Below are positions 13,345 through 30,108 of a DNA stretch of 64,000 bases, piece after piece. The notes beneath the pieces were generated by a model. That model did not search any database, was not told the origin of the DNA, and saw only the letters and a list, made by a program, of their open reading frames with translations. The translations under genes were made by a program, and so were the position numbers. Each line of letters begins with the position of its first letter. Positions within the stretch are counted from its first letter, which is position 1. Source of the stretch: Aquabacterium sp. NJ1 (GTDB taxonomy: Bacteria > Pseudomonadota > Gammaproteobacteria > Burkholderiales > Burkholderiaceae_C); contig NZ_JRKM01000001.1 of the NCBI RefSeq assembly GCF_000768065.1, positions 1,488,001 through 1,552,000 of the forward strand. Reading direction: 5' to 3'.

Positions 13345-13485
13345 TGGTTTACCCCAGTCGCTTAGCCATCTCTTTGATGACGTTGAAAATGATGGTGGGC
13401 CCCAAACTTTCGCAAGTTTTGAATGTGCAAACAAACGCGACCACCTCTTGAGGATGACGTCAGAATTCAATATGGAGACAGCACG

Positions 13486-16400
13486 ATGGGAACTAATCCT
13501 GAGACCAGCGCATCCAGTCGACCAGCCCTGCTCTTCCGGGTTCGGACAAGTGGTGCGCACGAGCGTTCAACCGCCTATTTAGACTTGGCACTTTTCCACT
13601 TCGACAACGCTCGTTTTGAGCGCTCTAGAGCGTGGCTAGGCCGCGCTATGCGCAGCCTAGCCACCGCTCACGCGCAATATGCAGCTGCGTGCCTCAATGG
13701 GTTGCTTGCATACGCCCAGCAACACGGTGCAATGGGAGTTTGTATTCTCAGAAGTGAACTTAACGCTGGGTTGGATAAAACCGGCTGGACAGACTCGATG
13801 CGCTTGGCGCCTCCCTCGTCAGATTGGCCGCCCGCCGAGCGCGCATGGACCATGCGGTACTTTGCCAGGCTTGTCAGATATCGTTGCCAGGATAGGCACG
13901 CGTATGTCTCTGCCATTTGGTCAGTTCAGGCGTCCGCCGAAGCTGAACAATTTACTCACCAAATGCTACTTGACCAACTCTCGACGCTCCAGCTCTTTTC
14001 CAAAGACAGCGAGCTTGAAGATGTCTTGCCGGTGGTACTTGAGGTAGGAAAGTTGGCTGCAGCGGCAAGGCAACCGCACATCATGGAAGAGATGCTTGAG
14101 CTTGCGCAGAAGATTGCTCCGTCAGACATCGTTGTAGCTGCAAAGTCGTTCCTGATACGAGCAGATGCAAGTTCTTCCCGGTGGTCTCGCCTAAGCCTTT
14201 GGAATTTGCTCTTGCGAACCTCCGAGCGGGAATCCAATGAGCTTGCACCAACTCTGGAAGCCCAAGAGTTCGGTCTTCCGTCTGGCACATGCATTGACGA
14301 AGTTACTGCCGCTATTACAAAGGTAGGCGAATTAGCTGGCGAGTGGCACGGAGAGATTTTGGTCGAGTTGTTACTCAGGAGTTCTTACGTATTCATGCTC
14401 ACGGGAGCTGCTGACGAGGCTTTCGGAGCTTGCGACTCAGCGGTCGCAGTTTGCCGTAGAGATGGAATGCTTCACCTGTTGCCCCAAGCTCTGACGATGT
14501 CCGCCCTTGCCAAGGTCTCGACCCTCGACCTTGTTACTGCCGAGGCCTATGTTTCTCAAGTCGTCACGTCAATCCATCGCATTGGCAGCCACAGCGTCGC
14601 CTTGGCATGCTGCCTCATCCTAGTGCGGTGGGGTCGATACTCACTCATTCGCCGTTCTAGCTACCCAGAGGCAAGCGCCTCATTTGCGCTTGCCCACAAG
14701 GTGGCTACCCAGTTTGGCCTGAAAATTTTGGCCGCCCAGGCCCTTATGGACATGGCATCGGTGGATGACTCTATTGGATACCGCCATCTCAGTGCCTCTC
14801 GCGTACGCTTGGCAACTAGTACCTTCTTGAGGGCGCACTGGCAATCTGAGCAGCCAGACGACGCCGTTTTTAACCGAGTGACTTTTGCTCTGAACGAAAG
14901 TGCGCTGGCTTACACCCTTGAATTGAACCCAGACGGTGTTGACCTCGTATGCGCGGACATGCGGCGCTTGCTCAAGAGACCCGCGCCGAAGCTGCCAAGG
15001 TCGAGCGAACACGCAGAGGCCAGAAGGGCCCGAGCGGCCTGGCTGCGTCATGCCAGGTACCGGTTGCAAATATTCGGGATGATGGGCCTTCTAGCTAAGG
15101 CACTGCTGAAGGCTCGCGAGGGTGACAGGAATGGTGTTCATGCAATCTATAAGTTAGCTGCGCCTCGCGTCGCTCGGCTGCCGGAAGATGACCGCCACTT
15201 CTTCATGGCCCAGTTTGCTCGTGAGCGCAACGATATTGACACTGCATTCGAAGCCACTCAGGCGTGGGCGAAGCTCAATCTTTCCAGGGGGATACTGGCT
15301 GAAATCCGCAGCTTCTTGGAGTCCTCAGGAGGGGAACTCCCTCAAGCAGAACTGCGCGTCCAAGCCGCTCAGGTTCTCTTTCAGAACATGCAAGGGCTCA
15401 ATACTGTTCGAAAATTTCAGGCCGCCGAAGACGTTCTGAAAAAAATCGAAGGTCTGATGGGAAAGGAGTGGTTTGATACCTTGCCGAAACTTCGACTGCA
15501 AGGGCGCCTAGAGACAGCCAAGTTGAAGCTAGGGTTGCGTCGCCCAAAGGAAGCGCTTGAAGTTGCGCAAGCATTCATTCAGCTCTATGAAGAAATCGAA
15601 GCGCAGGTCTCCGACGATGCTCGAATGCTGGCGGTCACAGGCGAACACGGGCTTTCCGACGCTTACGTGATAGCGGCAGCAGCTTTCATTGAGCTTGGAC
15701 GCGTTAACGAAGCCTGGCAAGTCGGAGAGTGTGGTCGCGGCCGCGCACTCAAGCATCTTCTCGCCCAGTCTGAAAGACCTGAGGCTTCAGAAACCGCAAG
15801 CAAAGAGGGGCGCCATGTCCCGGACGTGCAGGCAGCCATAGATGCTTCTCGCACATACCGTCTATCCCAGGAACCTGCAAGGCACTCTGATAATGCCGAC
15901 GGCATTTTTAGCGGCAGCCATGTCAACGTCGGTACTTCGTGGGCCGCCCAATCTGGTTTGCGAGAAGCCGCCGTTGCCCGACAGCAGCGATTTTTAGAGG
16001 AAGCAGAAATCGCGTCGACTGCGCGCCGGTGTCCACATAACACAACCATCCTCGCGTTCTCGCTCGTGGAAGACATCTTCTTGTCTTGGTCTGTGGATTC
16101 AACCGGTCTGAGATCGTCCCATCGTATGTCGCTTGAGAGCCGAGAGGTTGCTCAGCTCGTGGCAGGGTACCTCCGAGCATGCACAGAATTGCGGGGTACG
16201 GAAAGCTTCGGCACTCGGCTTAGCAAGCTCTTGTTAGAGCCTCATGCGGCCTCACTACCGGTTGGCCGGGATGTCGTCATTGCCCCGTACGGAGACCTCT
16301 TCCGACTACCGATTCACGCTTTGCCATTTGACGATGGCAAGCCATTTGGTATGTCTAGGGCGGTCAGCTACGTACCTGCCGCCTCTATTGTCGGGCGCCC

Positions 16401-17067
16401 GTATCGCCAAAGCAGAAAGCACTCTGCGCCTGTTGTGGTGGGGCGCCCGGACTCTCCAGGAGATGCAATCCATCGCGAGCTTGTAGAGGTTGGCTCAACT
16501 CTCGGCTGCGAACCAGTGATTTCGTCCGGACTGCAGAAGGCTGAGCTTTTAGAGCTCGTCAGCCTTGGGTCACCGATACACATTGCTGCTCATGGCCACT
16601 TTGACCCTGAACAGCCATGGCTCTCAACTTTGAACTTGGTAGGGGCAGACGACCTGGTAAGCGCCGGGGAGTTGGCTCAGTTGAAGCTGCATGCTGAGCT
16701 GGTGACGCTGGGCGCTTGCTCGACCGGCGCGGCGGACCGAATGCGCAATGATGTAACTGGATTCGCCCGGGCATTCCTTGCCGCCGGTGTAGGCACGTGT
16801 GTATTGAGCCTATGGGAAGTCGATAGCAGTGCCACTCACATGCTCATGGCAACTTTCTATCAGGGCATAGCGCAAGGCAAGTCCCCTGCGCTGGCTCTTC
16901 AAACGGCCCAAGCAGCCTTGGTCGACATGGGCGATGCTGGGGGCATTCGCGGCCGCGTCCGTGCACTGACTGATGGCACCCATGACGATGTCAATCCAAG
17001 CTTGGACTGGTCACACCCCTACTTCTGGGCGGGCTTTGTTGCGATCGGCCCGCGAGCCTCAAGCTAA
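13486..17067 (+). CDS. Large CHAT-domain (caspase-like) protease with helical-repeat N-terminus
   Basis: A 1193-residue protein. The last 330 residues form a CHAT domain, the caspase-HetF-associated TPR peptidase fold. The His-Cys dyad is visible: HIAAHG with His1036 and LGACSTG with Cys1078, followed by the usual GFARAFLAAG and VLSLWEVDS motifs. The first 800 residues look all-helical and alanine/leucine rich, like degenerate TPR repeats, and carry the sensing role in known members. The ATG at 13486 has GGAGA 10 bases upstream, so I prefer it to the ATG at 13423. Codon use is visibly less GC-rich than in the core genes, suggesting acquisition. CHAT proteases act in Craspase and in gasdermin defence. 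The substrate here is unknown, and no gasdermin-like or CRISPR gene is adjacent. Confidence 0.88.
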   Translation: MGTNPETSASSRPALLFRVRTSGAHERSTAYLDLALFHFDNARFERSRAWLGRAMRSLATAHAQYAAACLNGLLAYAQQHGAMGVCILRSELNAGLDKTGWTDSMRLAPPSSDWPPAERAWTMRYFARLVRYRCQDRHAYVSAIWSVQASAEAEQFTHQMLLDQLSTLQLFSKDSELEDVLPVVLEVGKLAAAARQPHIMEEMLELAQKIAPSDIVVAAKSFLIRADASSSRWSRLSLWNLLLRTSERESNELAPTLEAQEFGLPSGTCIDEVTAAITKVGELAGEWHGEILVELLLRSSYVFMLTGAADEAFGACDSAVAVCRRDGMLHLLPQALTMSALAKVSTLDLVTAEAYVSQVVTSIHRIGSHSVALACCLILVRWGRYSLIRRSSYPEASASFALAHKVATQFGLKILAAQALMDMASVDDSIGYRHLSASRVRLATSTFLRAHWQSEQPDDAVFNRVTFALNESALAYTLELNPDGVDLVCADMRRLLKRPAPKLPRSSEHAEARRARAAWLRHARYRLQIFGMMGLLAKALLKAREGDRNGVHAIYKLAAPRVARLPEDDRHFFMAQFARERNDIDTAFEATQAWAKLNLSRGILAEIRSFLESSGGELPQAELRVQAAQVLFQNMQGLNTVRKFQAAEDVLKKIEGLMGKEWFDTLPKLRLQGRLETAKLKLGLRRPKEALEVAQAFIQLYEEIEAQVSDDARMLAVTGEHGLSDAYVIAAAAFIELGRVNEAWQVGECGRGRALKHLLAQSERPEASETASKEGRHVPDVQAAIDASRTYRLSQEPARHSDNADGIFSGSHVNVGTSWAAQSGLREAAVARQQRFLEEAEIASTARRCPHNTTILAFSLVEDIFLSWSVDSTGLRSSHRMSLESREVAQLVAGYLRACTELRGTESFGTRLSKLLLEPHAASLPVGRDVVIAPYGDLFRLPIHALPFDDGKPFGMSRAVSYVPAASIVGRPYRQSRKHSAPVVVGRPDSPGDAIHRELVEVGSTLGCEPVISSGLQKAELLELVSLGSPIHIAAHGHFDPEQPWLSTLNLVGADDLVSAGELAQLKLHAELVTLGACSTGAADRMRNDVTGFARAFLAAGVGTCVLSLWEVDSSATHMLMATFYQGIAQGKSPALALQTAQAALVDMGDAGGIRGRVRALTDGTHDDVNPSLDWSHPYFWAGFVAIGPRASS

Positions 17068-17099
17068 AAGGCACACGCCTTTCGGTCGTGCGCCCCAAC

Positions 17100-18053
17100 T
17101 TATCTTGGCTGACGCTGAGCCGAAGCCACATCTAACGCCGGCTGCTTTGACAGCTCCACGAGCCAAGCATCGACCGCCTCCAACCATGAGCCACGCATAC
17201 GGCTGTGCAGAGTCTCGTCCTGACGTAGCGGCTCGCTATAGGCCAGAGCTGTGTCTGCCCAGTACTGCCATGCTGCCCGCTTAGAAGAGTCTTGCCCCAG
17301 ATGGTGTTGCGGATGATGCGGCAGGTCTCCTGCCCACCAGCACAGACGGATCAGTGTTTTGGAAAACACGCTCAAGATGAACAGGCTTGTCGAAATGAAG
17401 GTCCACTTTTCAGGAACGATGGGTGATGCATGCCTCCACTGGCAGAGCGCGACAACTCGCTCACGCCCCCCAGCTTGAGGATTGACGTTCCAATAGTGAC
17501 GGGTCACCAGTTCGCCATATGCTCCAATGTTGCCGCCGACGAGAAGCAGGAGCACCGCGCCAAGGAAGCCAGGCATCAGGGTGAGAGCACCTGCAATCGA
17601 TGCCAAGCCACCCCAGAACGCCCAAGCCCCAAGCATGCGTATCGGTGGACCTGAGAAGAAGTTCGCCTGAAGCCGCCTCCAAGATGTTCGAACATGCCAC
17701 CAGGGATTCAGCGGGATTAGGAGGGCCAGCATCCGCAAGGCGATGACACTCCGCCCAGGCCGAAACCCCTCCTCGTACAGCTCGGTCGCCTCTTCATCAT
17801 GAAACAGTTGAGCCAGTTTCCAGAATGCGTGGTGTTTTTGGTGGATCTCCCGATATCGCTTGAGTGGAATGGACAGGGAAACGATTCCTATCAGGTCACC
17901 CAGCAGATTGTCGAGCCACGGAATCCCATAGATTTTGCCGTGGGATGCGTGGTGAATCAAAACGCTGCTGCCCTTGGTTTTAATGTGGGCCATGAGCGCG
18001 AAGGCAGTCAAGAGAGTCGCGATTGCCGGCGGATTAACTTCGATGAGGGCCAT
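17100..18053 (-). CDS. Fatty-acid-desaturase-like membrane protein
   Basis: A 317-residue membrane protein starting at the ATG at 18053, preceded by ACAGGAGAC. Histidine clusters match the di-iron membrane desaturase/hydroxylase pattern: HHASH (34-38), HQKHH (71-75) and a late HHPQHH. Hydrophobic helices lie at about residues 8-24 and 170-205. Such enzymes desaturate or hydroxylate acyl chains or sterol-like lipids at the inner membrane. It is convergent with the CHAT gene, with 32 bases between stops, and lies 16 bases after a small membrane protein gene in the same direction. Neither its lipid substrate nor its electron donor is evident here. Confidence 0.72.
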   Translation of the reverse strand: MALIEVNPPAIATLLTAFALMAHIKTKGSSVLIHHASHGKIYGIPWLDNLLGDLIGIVSLSIPLKRYREIHQKHHAFWKLAQLFHDEEATELYEEGFRPGRSVIALRMLALLIPLNPWWHVRTSWRRLQANFFSGPPIRMLGAWAFWGGLASIAGALTLMPGFLGAVLLLLVGGNIGAYGELVTRHYWNVNPQAGGRERVVALCQWRHASPIVPEKWTFISTSLFILSVFSKTLIRLCWWAGDLPHHPQHHLGQDSSKRAAWQYWADTALAYSEPLRQDETLHSRMRGSWLEAVDAWLVELSKQPALDVASAQRQPR

Positions 18054-18069
18054 GTTCAGTCTCCTGTAG

Positions 18070-18297
18070 TTAAGCCAGAACGGAAGTGGCGTTGAACAAC
18101 GTCTGGCAACTCCAGACACTAAGTGCGCTTGCAAGTACCACCACAAACAGGTAGCAGAGCAAGTGCTGAGTGACACCCATCGGCTTGCGAGGCGGCTCCT
18201 TGCTGTGTGTCAGCCCGGTGAGCCAGGTCCAGAAGCGTTGGGTGAACCGTGGCAGCTTTGCCAGGGCGTCGCGGTTGTCGATCGGATTGGGTCGCAT
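18070..18297 (-). CDS. Small single-pass membrane protein upstream of the desaturase-like gene
   Basis: A 75-residue hypothetical protein with a polar N-terminus (about 43 residues, KLPRFTQRFWTWLTG) and one hydrophobic helix (LLCYLFVVVLASALSVWSC). No family is recognised. It lies 16 bases before the desaturase-like start, so the two probably form an operon. It could be an accessory subunit (inference). Confidence 0.5.
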   Translation of the reverse strand: MRPNPIDNRDALAKLPRFTQRFWTWLTGLTHSKEPPRKPMGVTQHLLCYLFVVVLASALSVWSCQTLFNATSVLA

Positions 18298-18469
18298 GGG
18301 GTAATCTCAGATTGGGTGGTTGAGGATTGCCTGGCCAGGTGACTCAATGATCATCAGCGGAGTGCCTCGATAGGACAGCCTATAGGCGAGGCTTCTTCGC
18401 ATATCCCGCGCTAGTTCAAACACCCTCAGCTATCATGAAAGCCGCCGAGCTAGCCTCCACAGACTTAGC
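18298..18469. promoter_or_regulatory. Divergent promoter region, desaturase operon / HTH-metalloprotease operon
   Basis: The 172-base spacer between the small membrane protein gene and the HTH-metalloprotease operon must hold promoters for both directions. I see no strong dyad. A short ATG frame at 18435 ends at once. Confidence 0.4.
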
Positions 18470-19294
18470 ATGCCGCGTCAATCCACACGCCTACACGTGC
18501 CGCACCTGCGCTACAAGCTTGATGTCTTGTGTGCGCAGCTTCGAAGAAACCAGGATTCCCTGGCGACCGAACTGTGCGTCTCGCCAAATACGCTGAGCGA
18601 GTACATCAACGGAGTCGCCTCTAAGCCCAGCAAGCCGCCAGAGTCGATGCCGGCCGCCAAAGTTGATCTGCTTGCCAAGTTGCTTCAGAGGTCGGGTCGA
18701 CAGGGGATTTCTTCCCAGCAGGCCGTGGACGCGTTGCGGTCGGCGGACAAGGATGTGTTCGCATCGCTCTTTCAACCGCGGCGTGCCGGGAACCTAGCGG
18801 AACTCCTCGCCGGACGGAGCAGTGAGTTGGTCATCACTACTTACGTCGTCCCGCTGCAAATGCGTCGTGCGTTGGCGGATCAGGACGCAGATGACAGGCC
18901 CGTCCCGAGTGGACCCGTTCGCCTCAATCACGCGGTGAGCGGAGTTAAGTTCCGGATCTTCACTGAACCGGGCGCTCGCCTGTTTTGCGCCTGTTCGTAC
19001 GGAGAGCATTTGATCCAGGTGATTCCTGGATCACGCCATTCTGGCTCTGTAACGAAGGCCTGGGAGTTGGTGCCCCAACCACCTGCTGACCACATTCAGT
19101 TCTTGCCTTCGGAGGGGCGGCACCGTTTCATCTTCATTCAGGCGTCAGCCCCAACTCTCCAAGCGCGAGCCTTGGAGCATGGACTCAAGGAGTCGTTGCA
19201 GGGCCACGAGATTGAGGCACTCGCCAGTCAGCTTGCCGATCTGCCTCTCGACAATGCGTGGAAATGGGGCGAAGTCGTGATCGAAGTGGAGTGA
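18470..19294 (+). CDS. Putative helix-turn-helix protein, first gene of twin-metalloprotease operon
   Basis: A 274-residue protein not assigned to a named family. Residues 12-48 look like a Cro/XRE-type helix-turn-helix (RYKLDVLCAQLRRNQDSLA, then CVSPNTLSEYING). After a linker and a helix (DLLAKLLQRSG), residues 95-274 are a mixed alpha/beta region with repeated beta-like stretches (VKFRIFTEPGARLFCACSYG and HRFIFIQA). That region could be a sensor domain. The stop lies 3 bases before the GTG of the next gene, so translation is coupled. By position it may be the operon's regulator or its sensor (inference). Confidence 0.62.
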   Translation: MPRQSTRLHVPHLRYKLDVLCAQLRRNQDSLATELCVSPNTLSEYINGVASKPSKPPESMPAAKVDLLAKLLQRSGRQGISSQQAVDALRSADKDVFASLFQPRRAGNLAELLAGRSSELVITTYVVPLQMRRALADQDADDRPVPSGPVRLNHAVSGVKFRIFTEPGARLFCACSYGEHLIQVIPGSRHSGSVTKAWELVPQPPADHIQFLPSEGRHRFIFIQASAPTLQARALEHGLKESLQGHEIEALASQLADLPLDNAWKWGEVVIEVE

Positions 19295-19297
19295 TGC

Positions 19298-20434
19298 GTG
19301 GCAGGCAAGTCTTCGGCAGGCGCTATCGTTGACGTGCAGGCCGCGCTACGCGGTGTCCTTGAAGAAATGATCCGTTTGGAAGGACTGCAAGCGAAGCCGG
19401 AAAGGAGCGCTGTGCAGTCACAACTCGATGTTCAGGCCTTGCTGCAGGCATGGCAGGAAGGAGATGTCGCGGCCTTAGGCCCGCACGGGGGGCAACTGAT
19501 CGCCTCATTGCACTCGAGCCCCGCGATTCGTAGTGCCCTGAGTTCTCTGCAGGCCCAGTCTTTCCCGCTCTTCGACGGTACGGGAAAGGTTGGGCGTTAC
19601 CTTGGAATGATCTCGCGGGCGCTCAAGCAGGATGGTGTTGATTTACCTTCCGGCATCCTGTTCGCCGAGTACCCCACGCACCGATTCAATGCCTGTGTCG
19701 TCTCCACGGCCCAGGGCAATCTGTGCCTGATAAACACGGGACTGATCAAGTTGCTGTATCACGTCAGCGTAGCGGCCAACTACGCTTACGACGAGGATGG
19801 GCGCCTGGGTGCTGTCGACAGCGCCCCGGTCAAGGTGGCTACTGCGCTTGTCCTCTCGGGCGTCGCACAGTATCTCGGTACAGGGGTGCACGTCCACGTC
19901 CAGGCCACCGGCCACGTGCTACCTCCCGAAGGTCTCTATGATGCGACTGCGCTAGCCTACGCGATGCGGTTGTTTGTTCTCGCGCACGAGATCGGGCATG
20001 TCGTGCTGGTGCACACCGAGGTCGAAGATGCACAGACGCGGGTGTGCGCGCTGGCGGAAACATCGGTGATCTGCCGCGAGCAACGGGATGAGTTTGCCGC
20101 CGATCGGTTCGCCCAGGACGTGCTGCTAAACATCGATCAGCATGGGTTCTTCGCCGAGCCTGTCGCGGCGGGCGGCCTTGCATTCCTAATGGTCCATGCA
20201 ATCGTTCTGCGTGTCTCGGCACAGCTCGGCCATGCCACCCCGATCAGGCCAGGAGATGAAGAGAGCCACCCACCAACGATGGAGCGAATTAAGGCACTGG
20301 ATGTCCATCTCGATACAACTTATGGTGAAGGCAACCGCGAGGCGCTAGGGCTGTGTGTCGTCCTTCAACGCATCCTGATTGCGATCGAACACTTCGAGAT
20401 CGTGGCCATCGGCGATGGCGTCGAGTTGCGATAG
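19298..20434 (+). CDS. HExxH metallopeptidase-like protein 1
   Basis: A 378-residue protein beginning at GTG 19298, three bases after the preceding stop. The zinc-binding motif HEIGH is at residues 230-234 inside a hydrophobic helix (AMRLFVLAHEIGHVVLVH). A downstream DEFAADRFA helix offers the third ligand, Glu265, the layout of gluzincin peptidases such as M48. The N-terminal 150 residues are helical and unrecognised. No signal peptide or transmembrane helix is seen, so it is probably cytoplasmic. It is followed after 8 bases by a second, only distantly similar metallopeptidase. Substrate unknown. Confidence 0.72.
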   Translation: MAGKSSAGAIVDVQAALRGVLEEMIRLEGLQAKPERSAVQSQLDVQALLQAWQEGDVAALGPHGGQLIASLHSSPAIRSALSSLQAQSFPLFDGTGKVGRYLGMISRALKQDGVDLPSGILFAEYPTHRFNACVVSTAQGNLCLINTGLIKLLYHVSVAANYAYDEDGRLGAVDSAPVKVATALVLSGVAQYLGTGVHVHVQATGHVLPPEGLYDATALAYAMRLFVLAHEIGHVVLVHTEVEDAQTRVCALAETSVICREQRDEFAADRFAQDVLLNIDQHGFFAEPVAAGGLAFLMVHAIVLRVSAQLGHATPIRPGDEESHPPTMERIKALDVHLDTTYGEGNREALGLCVVLQRILIAIEHFEIVAIGDGVELR

Positions 20435-20442
20435 CACCGCGC

Positions 20443-21507
20443 ATGATCTCGGATGACCTAGGTCCCAAGCACGCGAACCGGTTGTTTCGGACACCGGTGG
20501 GCACCGCCTCTGCGCGTCGGCTCCGAGCCGTTGACCTGAAGGCGTTCACTCCAAATACCGAGAGCGAGGTCGATCACTTCCTGGTGGCTTTCTGCGAGGG
20601 CTGGAGGCAGCGGGGGCACGAAGGCGCCCTTCCCGAGCGTCGTGGCGCACGAAAGGCGATGGATGAACAGGATCGTAACTTTCTGTGGCTGTGGGACCTC
20701 GCGCGAAAGGAGATCGGGCGGAAGAGGCGCGACCCATCTGTGGCCATCGCACCGCTACTGTCCCTAGGCAATCCCGTGATCATCCCCGGCCCGAGGCCAT
20801 TGATCGTCATGGCAGAAGGGCTCTGGTCGCTGATCATGAAGGTCGCGCTCGGAATTTTGGTCTGGGCTGATGGTCCCTCCGGTTATGAGGACGCGGGGCT
20901 CACGTTTGTGCGCCATGCATGCGAGGAGTGGCGCACCAACGATCCGGAGCGAGGGCCGCCCGGTAGAGCGGTAATCTCGCTGTCAACGCTCGACCAGGAC
21001 ATCACGACGTTCGCAGTGGGCCTGGCTCACGGATTCTTCACCTGGGCCTATTTGCATGAGCTGGGCCACTTTCGGCTTGGGCACCTCCCCAGTGCCGTGG
21101 TCGCTCGGGCTGCGCTGGCCGGTGATGATAGTCAGGGACAAGACCCGAAGGGCGAGGTGCGCGCGTACATGCACGCGGAAGAACTTCAGGCTGACGCCTT
21201 CGCAGCGGATGCGTATCTCCGCTTGATGCCCCTGGAGCTCACGGTGCGCGGGCGGATGGAGTTCGGCCAGCAGATCGATCACGCGCCCTTGATTGGTATG
21301 GAGGTCATCAATCTGGCAATGCGACTTGCAGGCCGCAGCGGCGACCTCACGTCCAGCACCCATCCGGCGCCCTTGACGAGGCGATCTGCGATGGCTGATT
21401 CGTTCGAACCAAGGTTCACGCTAGCGGGCAGAAGCTTCTACGCGGCCTGGACCGCCAGGCTGATTGAAGCGGGCGAGGCACTTGGCGTCCCTCGCCACCT
21501 GGTGTGA
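20443..21507 (+). CDS. HExxH metallopeptidase-like protein 2
   Basis: A 354-residue protein from the ATG at 20443. The zinc motif HELGH is at residues 205-209 (TWAYLHELGHFRLGH) and a second helix, EELQADAFAADAYL, holds the probable third ligand at Glu246/247. The order resembles the preceding protein: variable N-domain, HExxH helix, E-x-x-A-D helix, then a helical tail with HP near the end. Overall sequence identity by eye is low, so these are two diverged partners rather than a recent duplication. An earlier in-frame start would overlap the upstream gene. No export signal is seen. Both proteases could process each other or the HTH protein (inference). Confidence 0.72.
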   Translation: MISDDLGPKHANRLFRTPVGTASARRLRAVDLKAFTPNTESEVDHFLVAFCEGWRQRGHEGALPERRGARKAMDEQDRNFLWLWDLARKEIGRKRRDPSVAIAPLLSLGNPVIIPGPRPLIVMAEGLWSLIMKVALGILVWADGPSGYEDAGLTFVRHACEEWRTNDPERGPPGRAVISLSTLDQDITTFAVGLAHGFFTWAYLHELGHFRLGHLPSAVVARAALAGDDSQGQDPKGEVRAYMHAEELQADAFAADAYLRLMPLELTVRGRMEFGQQIDHAPLIGMEVINLAMRLAGRSGDLTSSTHPAPLTRRSAMADSFEPRFTLAGRSFYAAWTARLIEAGEALGVPRHLV

Positions 21508-21933
21508 TCGGCACGCGCAGCAAATGAAGTTGGTTCGTGATCCGAGTCCTGTTCGACTGAGCAACAACGAATTGCAGCTCTCAGCTGCCTCCAAAGCGGC
21601 AAAAACAACTGACTGACAATGGCATGCTCACGCAGCCAGGTACATCAAGCGAAAAAGTCGAAGTGCTTCCTTGACGAGGAATTCGCGAAGAGCTATGAAA
21701 ACGGGTGCGAACGTGCAGAGCGTATTGGCGCCGAAGTTGACAGCGCTACAGAGTGAAAGTTCACAGCGACTGGCAACTTCTGCGATAGAACGAAAGCCAC
21801 CATTTATTGCTATAGCGGTAGCAGGTGCCTGTGTCCAAAGTCAAGGTGAGATGGGGTGACATGGACGACCGCTTTCGCTGCGAACGAGCCGCTCATCGCC
21901 ATGGGCCGAAGGACCGCAACGGGTCGTCAGCGG
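21508..21933. other. Gene-free stretch after the metalloprotease operon
   Basis: About 425 bases, noticeably A/T-richer than the flanks, with no recognised gene. Open frames here are short and lack family features. It leads into the mobile-element scar at 22.2 kb. Confidence 0.4.
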
Positions 21934-22137
21934 TCATTTCGCCGATTTTGGTGGAGCATTCCCTTCTCGGTGCGTACGATCTCCGAGTGCGTTTGTGCGG
22001 GCAATGCGATGCTCGCAATCAAGTCTTCGGTACTCTTGCCGAATGCCGCGTATAGCTCCGGTCAGTGGTGCGAAATACAGCTGGGTGGCCTCTTTGGCCG
22101 CTAGCTGAATGTGAGTCCAAATGGACGACACGAGCAT
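21934..22137 (-). CDS. Possible small conserved hypothetical protein or remnant
   Basis: A 67-residue open frame from an ATG at 22137. SSIWTHIQLAAKEATQLYFA followed by PLTGAIRGI gives an amphipathic pattern like short proteins often seen beside mobile elements, but I cannot name the family. The lack of clear expression signals keeps this low. Confidence 0.28.
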   Translation of the reverse strand: MLVSSIWTHIQLAAKEATQLYFAPLTGAIRGIRQEYRRLDCEHRIARTNALGDRTHREGNAPPKSAK

Positions 22138-22230
22138 TCCTGTGGACTGAGACAGGTTCACGCTACGCCCAGGGTATTGATGTGTCAATGCCCCGATTTT
22201 CCGCGACGTACGTCAATTCGGCAGCAAGCT

Positions 22231-22350
22231 AGGGAAATCCGAAAAGTTCAAGAATGAATGAACAACTGGTTCCAAAATGAATGAGCAAAGCGCCGCTAAG
22301 TGAATGAATCACATGGCGGCCAAGTTCAAGAATGAACGACGCTCAACAGT
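22231..22350. repeat. IS-end-like repeat cluster, left copy
   Basis: CTAGGGAAA begins at 22229. It is followed by GTTCAAGAATGAATGAACAA (22246-22265), a looser copy GGTTCCAAAATGAATGAGCA near 22268, TGAATGAATCA, and GTTCAAGAATGAACG at 22324-22338. The same CTAGGGAAA prefix, full 20-mer and 15-mer recur at 48829-48883. Several short repeats in one orientation resemble the ends of insertion sequences with multiple terminal repeats. No transposase is present. The truncated flavoprotein gene ends just beyond. Confidence 0.65.
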
Positions 22351-22375
22351 ACTTGGCCCACATGTCGGTTCTCAC

Positions 22376-22660
22376 TCAGTTGTCGATGTGCAGGCCATCG
22401 GCAATCGCCACCTGCCCACCCATGCTGTAGCGCCCGCCGCCCACGGCCACCTTGCCGGGCCAGGCCGCCAAGGCCTTGGCCACATCAGCGGCCGTATGCG
22501 GTGAAGCAATGCGGGCCACGCGCACGCTGTAGAGTTGGGTGACGTTGCTGACCAGCAAGGACTCTGCAGCCAGCAACGGCGGCAGCCCGGGCGCTGCCAT
22601 CAGGCCTGCAGCCGCCAGCGATTGGGCGAGGACGCGCCGGCGGGGGAGTGATGTGGTCAT
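22376..22660 (-). pseudogene. Truncated FAD-linked oxidase (signal peptide and start of FAD domain)
   Basis: The frame codes for 94 residues: a Tat-like leader (SLPRRRVLAQSLAAAGLMA), then AADVAKALAAWPGKVAVGGG and RYSMGG, which is the beginning of a BBE/ALO-type FAD-binding domain. Family members run to about 450 residues, so more than three quarters is missing. The frame stops 26 bases beyond the repeat cluster, which probably marks the deletion or insertion junction. It cannot bind FAD as it stands. Confidence 0.72.
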
Positions 22661-22790
22661 GGAACGGGCCCTGCGGTTTGGATTTGTTTGATGTGTTGCG
22701 CAGGTTAGCGGAGGTGGAGGGCTGCCTGGAGCAAGGACGACGCCGATGCCTGGCCAAGGGGACAGGCAAGGTCGCAGCTATGGCACCGCA

Positions 22791-29094: not shown

Positions 29095-30108
29095 TCAGCC
29101 ACCCGCGGTCAGTGCGAGCAGCACGTCGGCATACCAGGCGCAGTTCAGCCCCGGCGATTCGTCTCGCACTTGGTCTCGGTCGCACATGTCCATGCGGGTC
29201 GAATGCACGCCGAGCAGGTGCCAGCTCGCGGTAGAGGCCCCCTGATGGCCGACGGTGCGCCGCCGCACGACCGGTGAGCCACTGCTGCCACGGTGGGTGC
29301 GCGCATCGGTCAGGAAACAGCCCTGTCGCTGGAAGCGCACGCCGTAGGCCGAGGCCAGGGTGGCACTTCGCGCCACGGCCAAATGGTGCACCGTGTCGTG
29401 AAAGCCGAGGGGGAAGCCTGCGATCGCCAACGCATCGCCGACCACGATCTCTTCTCCACGGGCGTCCAGATGGGTTTCGTCGAACGCCATCAGCACAGCC
29501 TCTGCGGGCAGACTGGTGGCGGGGATCGCCATCACCGCCACATCGACGGCGTCACCACTGTCCACCGCCTCGCGCCATTGGCTGAGGCCAGCTTGGTACA
29601 AGGGCAGCGAGAGCACGGTATGGCGGGTCAGATCCTGCGCGTGCGTGTGCAATCCGATCTCGATGCGATCTGGAAAGTGCGAACGGTCGGCATCGGCAAA
29701 GACGTGCCGATTGCTCACCAGGAACAACTGGTCTGCGCGCCGATAGAAGAAGCCGCTGGCGCGGTTCTGAACCACCGATCCCACGAACGTGGTGATCTGC
29801 GTGGTGGTGAGCAGCAGCGCATCGGCTGCGCCCGTCCACGCGGTGCGATCGCCCGGGCTTTGCCTGCGCTGCAGGAGCGCACGGTTGCGGGCCACCTCAC
29901 GCTCGAAAGTCATCAACACCACATCGGACATGTCCGAATGCAACATCACGGTGCGCGCGGCCTCGGCGTGGGCGTCGAACGACACCATCAGCTTGGCGAG
30001 CGCGGGCGCGGACAGCGTCTCGATGACGGCTGGCAACAGGGCGTCGAGCGCGACCAGGCTGCCCTTCAGTTCGCAGATGCGTTCCGTGGCTTGTTGCAGG
30101 TTTTTCAA
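29095..30108 (-). CDS. Trypsin-like serine protease with helical N-domain
   Basis: A 337-residue protein. The first 105 residues are helical (RICELKGSLVALDALLPAVI). The rest is a chymotrypsin-fold domain with its triad: His in LVSNRHVFAD, Asp in DAVDVAVMAIP, Ser in HRGSSGSPVV. No signal peptide is seen, so it is probably cytoplasmic, unlike DegP/HtrA, and it lacks a PDZ domain. Cytoplasmic trypsin-like peptidases are common as effectors in bacterial conflict systems, but no obvious partner lies next to it. The closest upstream gene in the same direction is a cold-shock gene, separated by a terminator, so the protease probably has its own promoter. Confidence 0.78.
   Translation of the reverse strand: MKNLQQATERICELKGSLVALDALLPAVIETLSAPALAKLMVSFDAHAEAARTVMLHSDMSDVVLMTFEREVARNRALLQRRQSPGDRTAWTGAADALLLTTTQITTFVGSVVQNRASGFFYRRADQLFLVSNRHVFADADRSHFPDRIEIGLHTHAQDLTRHTVLSLPLYQAGLSQWREAVDSGDAVDVAVMAIPATSLPAEAVLMAFDETHLDARGEEIVVGDALAIAGFPLGFHDTVHHLAVARSATLASAYGVRFQRQGCFLTDARTHRGSSGSPVVRRRTVGHQGASTASWHLLGVHSTRMDMCDRDQVRDESPGLNCAWYADVLLALTAGG

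What the first reader, a model, noticed from the sequence alone, without database searches (positions are those of the whole stretch)
18470..21507. Compact operon of an HTH-like protein and two different HExxH metalloproteases
Three genes spaced 3 and 8 bases apart encode an XRE-like protein with an unknown C-domain and two proteins that each carry HExxH plus a downstream E-x-x-A-D-type helix (HEIGH/DEFAADRF and HELGH/EELQADAF). The two proteases look diverged, not freshly duplicated. Single HTH plus HExxH pairs (ImmA/ImmR type) are known: the protease cleaves the repressor to trigger mobile-element or defence genes. A twin-protease version with a non-ImmA architecture is not one I recognise. 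This is the best candidate for an undescribed regulatory or defence module.
Basis: partly seen in the sequence, partly recalled or inferred. Interest (0 to 1): 0.78.

Follow-up and report, generated by a model that had tools for sequence, protein, structure and literature searches.

The report
Regulator operon with two metalloproteases
A bacterial chromosome carries, on a stretch of foreign-looking DNA, three tightly packed genes for a DNA-binding protein and two different, apparently intact metal-dependent proteases; it may be a protease-controlled switch of a familiar type with an unusual second protease, but no second copy of the trio was found.

Summary
Three intact genes lie 3 and 8 nt apart: an Xre-like HTH protein (18470-19294), MP1 (19298-20434) and MP2 (20443-21507). 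MP1 just passes the Pfam M48 cut-off; MP2 passes none; neither passes the M78 (ImmA/IrrE) cut-off. Both keep their catalytic motifs and are distantly alike. The operon lies on a lower-G+C segment that ends in a truncated resident oxidase gene at 22380/22381.

The predicted conserved triplet was not found. HTH and MP2 have no credible relative in anything searched. MP1 has distant relatives, but no relative of this HTH protein or of MP2 lies beside those examined. Search sensitivity was limited, and structure models were too poor to use.

Best guess: an HTH repressor whose operon opens when a protease cleaves it (as in CapH/CapP), with the second protease as effector or amplifier. This is inferred, not shown. 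New variant of a known kind; moderate interest, lowered by lack of recurrence.

The parts
18470..19294 (+). Xre-like HTH protein, 274 aa, C-terminal part of unknown family
   Evidence: ORF; HTH_3 E 7e-4 at res. 26-54, below cut-off; no match in 149 other family genomes or plasmids; AF2 model mean pLDDT 45.2
18545..18631 (+). HTH motif region (res. 26-54)
19298..20434 (+). MP1, M48-like metallopeptidase, 378 aa, GTG start
   Evidence: Pfam M48 20.7 bits against cut-off 20.3; PADLOC peptidase_U41 3e-9
19985..19999 (+). MP1 HEIGH zinc motif
20090..20104 (+). MP1 EFAAD (predicted third ligand Glu265)
   Evidence: E265 and D269 invariant in the four-sequence set A4
20267..20287 (+). MP1 HPPTMER, counterpart of the HP...R motif of M48 peptidases
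   Evidence: H324, P325, P326 and R330 invariant in A4
20443..21507 (+). MP2, second metallopeptidase-like protein, 354 aa
   Evidence: no Pfam or NCBIfam family at E <= 1; PADLOC capP 1.1e-3; relation to MP1
21055..21069 (+). MP2 HELGH zinc motif
21181..21195 (+). MP2 ELQAD (predicted third ligand Glu247)
21361..21384 (+). MP2 HPAPLTRR, counterpart of the HP...R motif
22381..22660 (-). truncated N-terminal end of a resident oxidase-like gene; the break at 22380/22381 is taken as the right edge of the foreign segment
   Evidence: blastn matches to three copies in two same-genus genomes all start at 22381; the rest of the gene was not found in the own genome beyond 24-30% identical paralogues

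Best explanation
One transcription unit, probably acquired by horizontal transfer, encodes an Xre-like DNA-binding protein and two M48-like zinc proteases that both keep their catalytic motifs. Most likely the HTH protein represses its own operon; a stress or invasion signal activates one protease (MP1 or MP2), which cleaves the HTH protein and so opens the operon, as ImmA does to ImmR and CapP to CapH; the second protease then acts on another target (effector) or amplifies the response. Shown: gene order, intact motifs, distant kinship of the proteases, foreign-like composition of the segment. Inferred: co-transcription, repression, cleavage, signal, division of labour and cytosolic location.
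For: Operon-like spacing of 3 and 8 nt. HExxH, ExxAD and HP...R present in both proteases and in the 6 own-genome M48 proteins read (invariant columns). MP1 matches PADLOC peptidase_U41 (3e-9), capP (7.5e-5) and Lit (6.5e-4); MP2 matches capP (1.1e-3). In the PDB the only protease found with the MP1-set profiles is CapP (7t5t_A), weakly: E 0.36 with A2, 0.035 with A4. HTH plus metalloprotease pairs in which the protease cleaves the HTH repressor are established (passages: PMC10233336; PMC10904395; PMC2701414).
Against: No recurrence of the trio in anything searched. Of six MP1-like neighbourhoods none holds a relative of this HTH protein or of MP2. The proteases do not pass the M78 cut-off, the family of ImmA/IrrE in Pfam. 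The HTH match is below its cut-off. The one operator-like palindrome, 18429-18442, is no better than chance (119 of 500 shuffles have one as good), and no sigma-70-like promoter was found in 17000-22700. No further gene follows in the operon that a repressor would guard.
Confidence: 0.35

Rival explanations
1. The HTH protein is an ordinary regulator that is not cut; MP1 and MP2 are effectors that degrade a host or phage protein when the operon is expressed (Lit-like abortive infection or a protein quality-control role).
For: MP1 aligns with PADLOC Lit (6.5e-4) and peptidase_U41 (3e-9). Five of six fetched neighbourhoods hold one MP1-like motif gene, and none of the six holds a relative of this HTH protein at E 0.01, so MP1-like proteins can work without it.
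Against: NCBIfam Lit gives 12.4 bits against a cut-off of 274; no evidence on a target; 0 of 7 other window proteins scanned matched PADLOC at 1e-5.
Confidence: 0.3
2. Toxin-antitoxin-like unit: the HTH protein is the antitoxin that holds one or both proteases inactive, and its loss frees a growth-stopping protease.
For: Small compact operon with the HTH gene first; Xre plus Zn-protease pairs were listed as putative toxin-antitoxin systems (PMC2701414, passages); in the three-gene system PD-lambda-2 the Xre-peptidase component alone was toxic (PMC9519451, passages).
Against: The families differ (COG2856 corresponds to M78 by recall; M78 not met here); the S. mutans ImmA had only a minor effect on E. 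coli growth (PMC10233336, passages); proteases of 354-378 aa are large for such toxins (general knowledge).
Confidence: 0.15
3. No joint function: three genes of different origin fell together on an acquired segment.
For: The trio was found once only; MP1-like genes occur without the other two; the segment ends in a truncated resident gene and contains stretches without clear ORFs.
Against: All three frames are intact, on one strand, 3 and 8 nt apart, with GC3 of 0.67, 0.68 and 0.73; MP1 and MP2 are distantly alike.
Confidence: 0.2

Closest known systems
ImmR/ImmA, DdrO/IrrE (PprI) and CapH/CapP modules
   Same: HTH gene next to an HExxH protease gene; likely repressor cleavage
   Different: Those have one IrrE-like (M78) protease; here two proteases with an M48-type HP...R motif and a long N-terminal part, neither passing the M78 cut-off
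M48 metallopeptidases (HtpX, BepA, Oma1 type)
   Same: HExxH, ExxAD and HP...R; MP1 just over the Pfam cut-off
   Different: Known bacterial ones are mostly membrane or periplasmic (recalled; BepA periplasmic in PMC8423444, abstract start); here the HExxH of MP1 seems to lie further from the edge-strand part, and there is an HTH gene in the operon; MP2 reaches no family cut-off
PADLOC peptidase_U41 and Lit (phage exclusion peptidase)
   Same: MP1 matches over the catalytic part, 3e-9 and 6.5e-4
   Different: Match is partial (res. 208-334 and 226-364); no target evidence; Lit is a single-gene effector (recalled)
PD-lambda-2 (three genes with an Xre-peptidase fusion)
   Same: Three-component unit with Xre and peptidase domains (PMC9519451, passages)
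   Different: There the peptidase is fused to the HTH and another component is HigB-like; here two separate proteases

Membership tests
ImmA/IrrE (Pfam M78, PF06114) | passes the family cut-off of 22 bits | tested here: not met
   MP1 18.1 bits, MP2 no match; 0 matches at E <= 0.001 in own genome
ImmA/IrrE-type regulatory module | HTH gene adjacent to HExxH protease gene | tested here: met
   the HTH match itself is below the Pfam cut-off
ImmA/IrrE-type regulatory module | protease cleaves the HTH repressor | not testable with these tools
   needs an assay
Peptidase M48 (PF01435) | passes the family cut-off of 20.3 bits | tested here: inconclusive
   MP1 20.7 bits and 20.3 in the genome search, at the limit; MP2 not met and not listed at E <= 1 in the genome
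Peptidase M48 (PF01435) | HExxH, ExxAD and HP...R in order | tested here: met
   MP1 and MP2, as in the 6 own-genome M48 proteins read; one search lists 8 places over the cut-off, MP1 being one and one more not read
Peptidase M48 (PF01435) | profile-level similarity to M48 | tested here: inconclusive
   hhalign A4 against A3: 36.8% over 23 columns only; A3 against MP2: 17.3% over 35 columns; alignments shallow
CapH/CapP of CBASS | CBASS genes next to the pair | tested here: not met
   none among the 12 window proteins scanned with PADLOC, which include the CHAT, desaturase and LysR neighbours; other window genes were not scanned
CapH/CapP of CBASS | protease similar to CapP | tested here: inconclusive
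   7.5e-5 (MP1) and 1.1e-3 (MP2), over 53 and 64 residues
Lit | passes NCBIfam PRK09672 cut-off of 274 bits | tested here: not met
   MP1 12.4 bits

The most novel reading that the evidence does not exclude
A repressor with a two-step proteolytic relay: one M48-like protease senses a trigger and activates, or removes a brake on, the second, which cuts the HTH repressor or a cell target, giving a threshold switch that single-protease modules lack; the HTH protein's unassigned C-terminal part would be the substrate or sensor.
Probability: 0.1. Interest if true: 0.65.

Novelty: new variant of a known kind. Interest (0 to 1): 0.4.

Why it matters
If the repressor-cleavage reading is right, proteolytic control of mobile or defence genes would not be limited to the M78 (ImmA/IrrE) family, and a pair of proteases in one switch would allow a relay.

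Tried and rejected
Homologues: MP2 had own-genome hits only, plus two weak matches that I judged chance: G1035 (E 9.8e-4; contains a stop, covers res. 48-126 only and not the HExxH part) and G564 (E 6.8e-4; starts after the HE pair, no motif). Scans of genome contigs and viral contigs gave nothing; they need a short near-exact peptide, and the scan with A2 returned no relative at all, so their silence is weak evidence. Single-sequence genome searches also miss distant relatives: one search did not report G695, which holds an MP1-like gene (L015) known. The G490 match (E 4.4e-4) was not followed up. The genome sets overlap and must not be summed.

My first wording, that MP1-like genes stand without any HTH gene, was wrong and is mended: in L020 a DeoR-type regulator gene starts 121 nt after the MP1-like gene, and in L024 (Rhizobium plasmid) an Xre-M78 fusion gene lies about 0.7 kb after a short MP1-like gene that lacks the HExxH part, with a DUF6932 gene between. 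Neither regulator matches the HTH protein of the window.

Structures: single-sequence AlphaFold2 models of MP2 (mean pLDDT 36.5) and HTH (45.2) are unusable, so no fold search was run.

Operator search: palindrome 18429-18442 judged chance; promoter scan empty. Rejected: that the upstream TPR-CHAT gene belongs to the operon; an opposite-strand desaturase gene lies between.

Papers: ten searches of the held library listed no paper that by title or abstract start describes an HTH plus two-metalloprotease operon; only open-licence papers are held and only the listed ones were looked at. I saw passages of six papers, none in full.

Full report
What is there. Three genes on the + strand follow each other with gaps of 3 and 8 nt: an HTH protein (18470-19294), MP1 (19298-20434, GTG start) and MP2 (20443-21507). 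All are intact, with GC3 of 0.67, 0.68 and 0.73. The HTH protein has a weak Xre-type match (HTH_3, 20.0 bits, cut-off 23); its remaining part matches nothing in Pfam, NCBIfam, PADLOC or PHROGs at a useful level.

The proteases. MP1 scores 20.7 bits on Pfam M48 (cut-off 20.3) and 18.1 on M78 (cut-off 22). MP2 reaches no Pfam or NCBIfam family even at E 1. In PADLOC, MP1 matches peptidase_U41 (3e-9), capP (7.5e-5) and Lit (6.5e-4); MP2 matches capP (1.1e-3). Both match PHROG 1914, a family of unknown function (2.5e-5 and 2.4e-3). I compared motifs with six M48 proteins of the same genome; one search lists eight places over the cut-off, of which MP1 is one and one more was not read. All six, and MP1 and MP2, carry HExxH, then ExxAD, then HP...R. 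In the alignment of the six, H-E-x-x-H, E, A, D, H, P and R are among the invariant columns. In BepA the HExxH motif, a downstream Glu ligand and a regulatory His form the active site (PMC8423444, passages); that this His lies in the HP motif is recalled. MP1 and MP2 are 22% identical over 136 columns (E 0.007), and the profile of three MP1-like proteins finds MP2 at 59% probability over 73 columns. Against this, profile comparison with the six M48 proteins is weak, so M48 membership is likely for MP1 and only suggested by motifs for MP2. The highest hydropathy stretches (19-residue means of 1.86 at res. 289 of MP1 and 1.82 at res. 121 of MP2) lie within the proteins and not at the N-terminus; a membrane segment cannot be fully excluded.

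Surroundings. G+C is 0.61-0.71 up to 12 kb, 0.55-0.62 between 12 and 25 kb and 0.65-0.68 from 25 to 30 kb. At 22380/22381 a resident oxidase-like gene is cut: 7 of 42 genus genomes including the own have its N-terminal part, and three copies in two of them align with the window from 22381 on; the rest of the gene was not found in the own genome beyond distant paralogues. In one of these genomes a full copy of the oxidase gene lies about 1.5 kb from a SIR2-HerA gene pair, so the site may be one where foreign genes land; this is one case. Upstream, on the + strand but separated by an opposite-strand desaturase gene, lies a TPR-CHAT protein (CHAT 9.5e-48).

Does it recur? MP2: of 61 near relatives only the own genome; of 399 of the order, own plus one match judged chance; of 225 of the phylum, own plus one match judged chance. 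HTH: of 150 family genomes only the own. MP1: of 369 class genomes only the own; of 150 genomes in the order of G695, one distant relative, G1189, while G695 itself was missed. With the PADLOC model peptidase_U41, 12 of 398 phylum genomes including the own; the 11 other loci of about 3 kb each show a single ORF of at least 100 aa with a filtered HExxH pattern. With profile A2, 2 of 200 including the own; the other was not followed up. Plasmids and phages: no match to MP1 or MP2, none to HTH in plasmids, none to the DNA in plasmids. Of six larger neighbourhoods of MP1-like proteins, five hold one MP1-like motif gene, one (L024) holds only a short match without the motif, and none has a match to HTH or MP2 at E 0.01; in L020 a second motif ORF is an antisense overlap. 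Two of the six do have some regulator nearby: a DeoR-type gene after the MP1-like gene in L020, and an Xre-M78 fusion gene near the shortened MP1-like gene in L024. The L024 case is a hint that MP1-like genes can keep company with HTH-protease genes, but it is one case and a different family. So the trio is rare or restricted; I cannot say it is unique, since not all public genomes were searched and sensitivity was limited.

How it most likely works. HTH-protease operons of the ImmR/ImmA, DdrO/IrrE and CapH/CapP type work by cleavage of the HTH repressor, in the last case stimulated by ssDNA (PMC10233336 and PMC10904395, passages). The gene order here fits that scheme, and I take repressor cleavage by one of the two proteases as the best single explanation (0.35). 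What the second protease does is open: effector, amplifier or partner. No step of the mechanism was tested here.

Verdict. The claim of a conserved undescribed module is not supported by recurrence. New variant of a known kind, interest 0.4.

Noticed in passing
window 13423-17067 (+): 1214-aa TPR-CHAT protein with His and Cys motifs (IHIAAHGHFD, LVTLGACSTG; catalytic role recalled); weak similarity to Csx29 (32.9 bits, cut-off 300), so not that family.
   Followed up: partly
window 29095-30108 (-): Trypsin-like protein with an extra N-terminal part; matches PADLOC candidate PDC-S45 at 4.6e-20.
   Followed up: partly
window 22381-22660 (-): Resident oxidase-like gene truncated after about 93 codons at the edge of the foreign segment.
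   Followed up: yes
L036 2443-5366: A same-genus genome carries a SIR2-HerA pair (4.2e-54, 6e-168) near a full copy of that oxidase gene, followed by an RtcR-type gene.
   Followed up: partly
L024 4980-7743: Rhizobium plasmid: short MP1-like gene without HExxH, a DUF6932 gene, then an Xre-M78 fusion gene (HTH_3 6.6e-11, M78 1.2e-5).
   Followed up: partly
window 30-49 kb: Second low-G+C stretch (0.54-0.61) between higher-G+C regions.
   Followed up: no
L015 5553-8368: MP1-like gene directly after a gene that fuses an AAA kinase-like part (AAA_18 1.9e-11) with adenylosuccinate synthetase (4.3e-53).
   Followed up: partly
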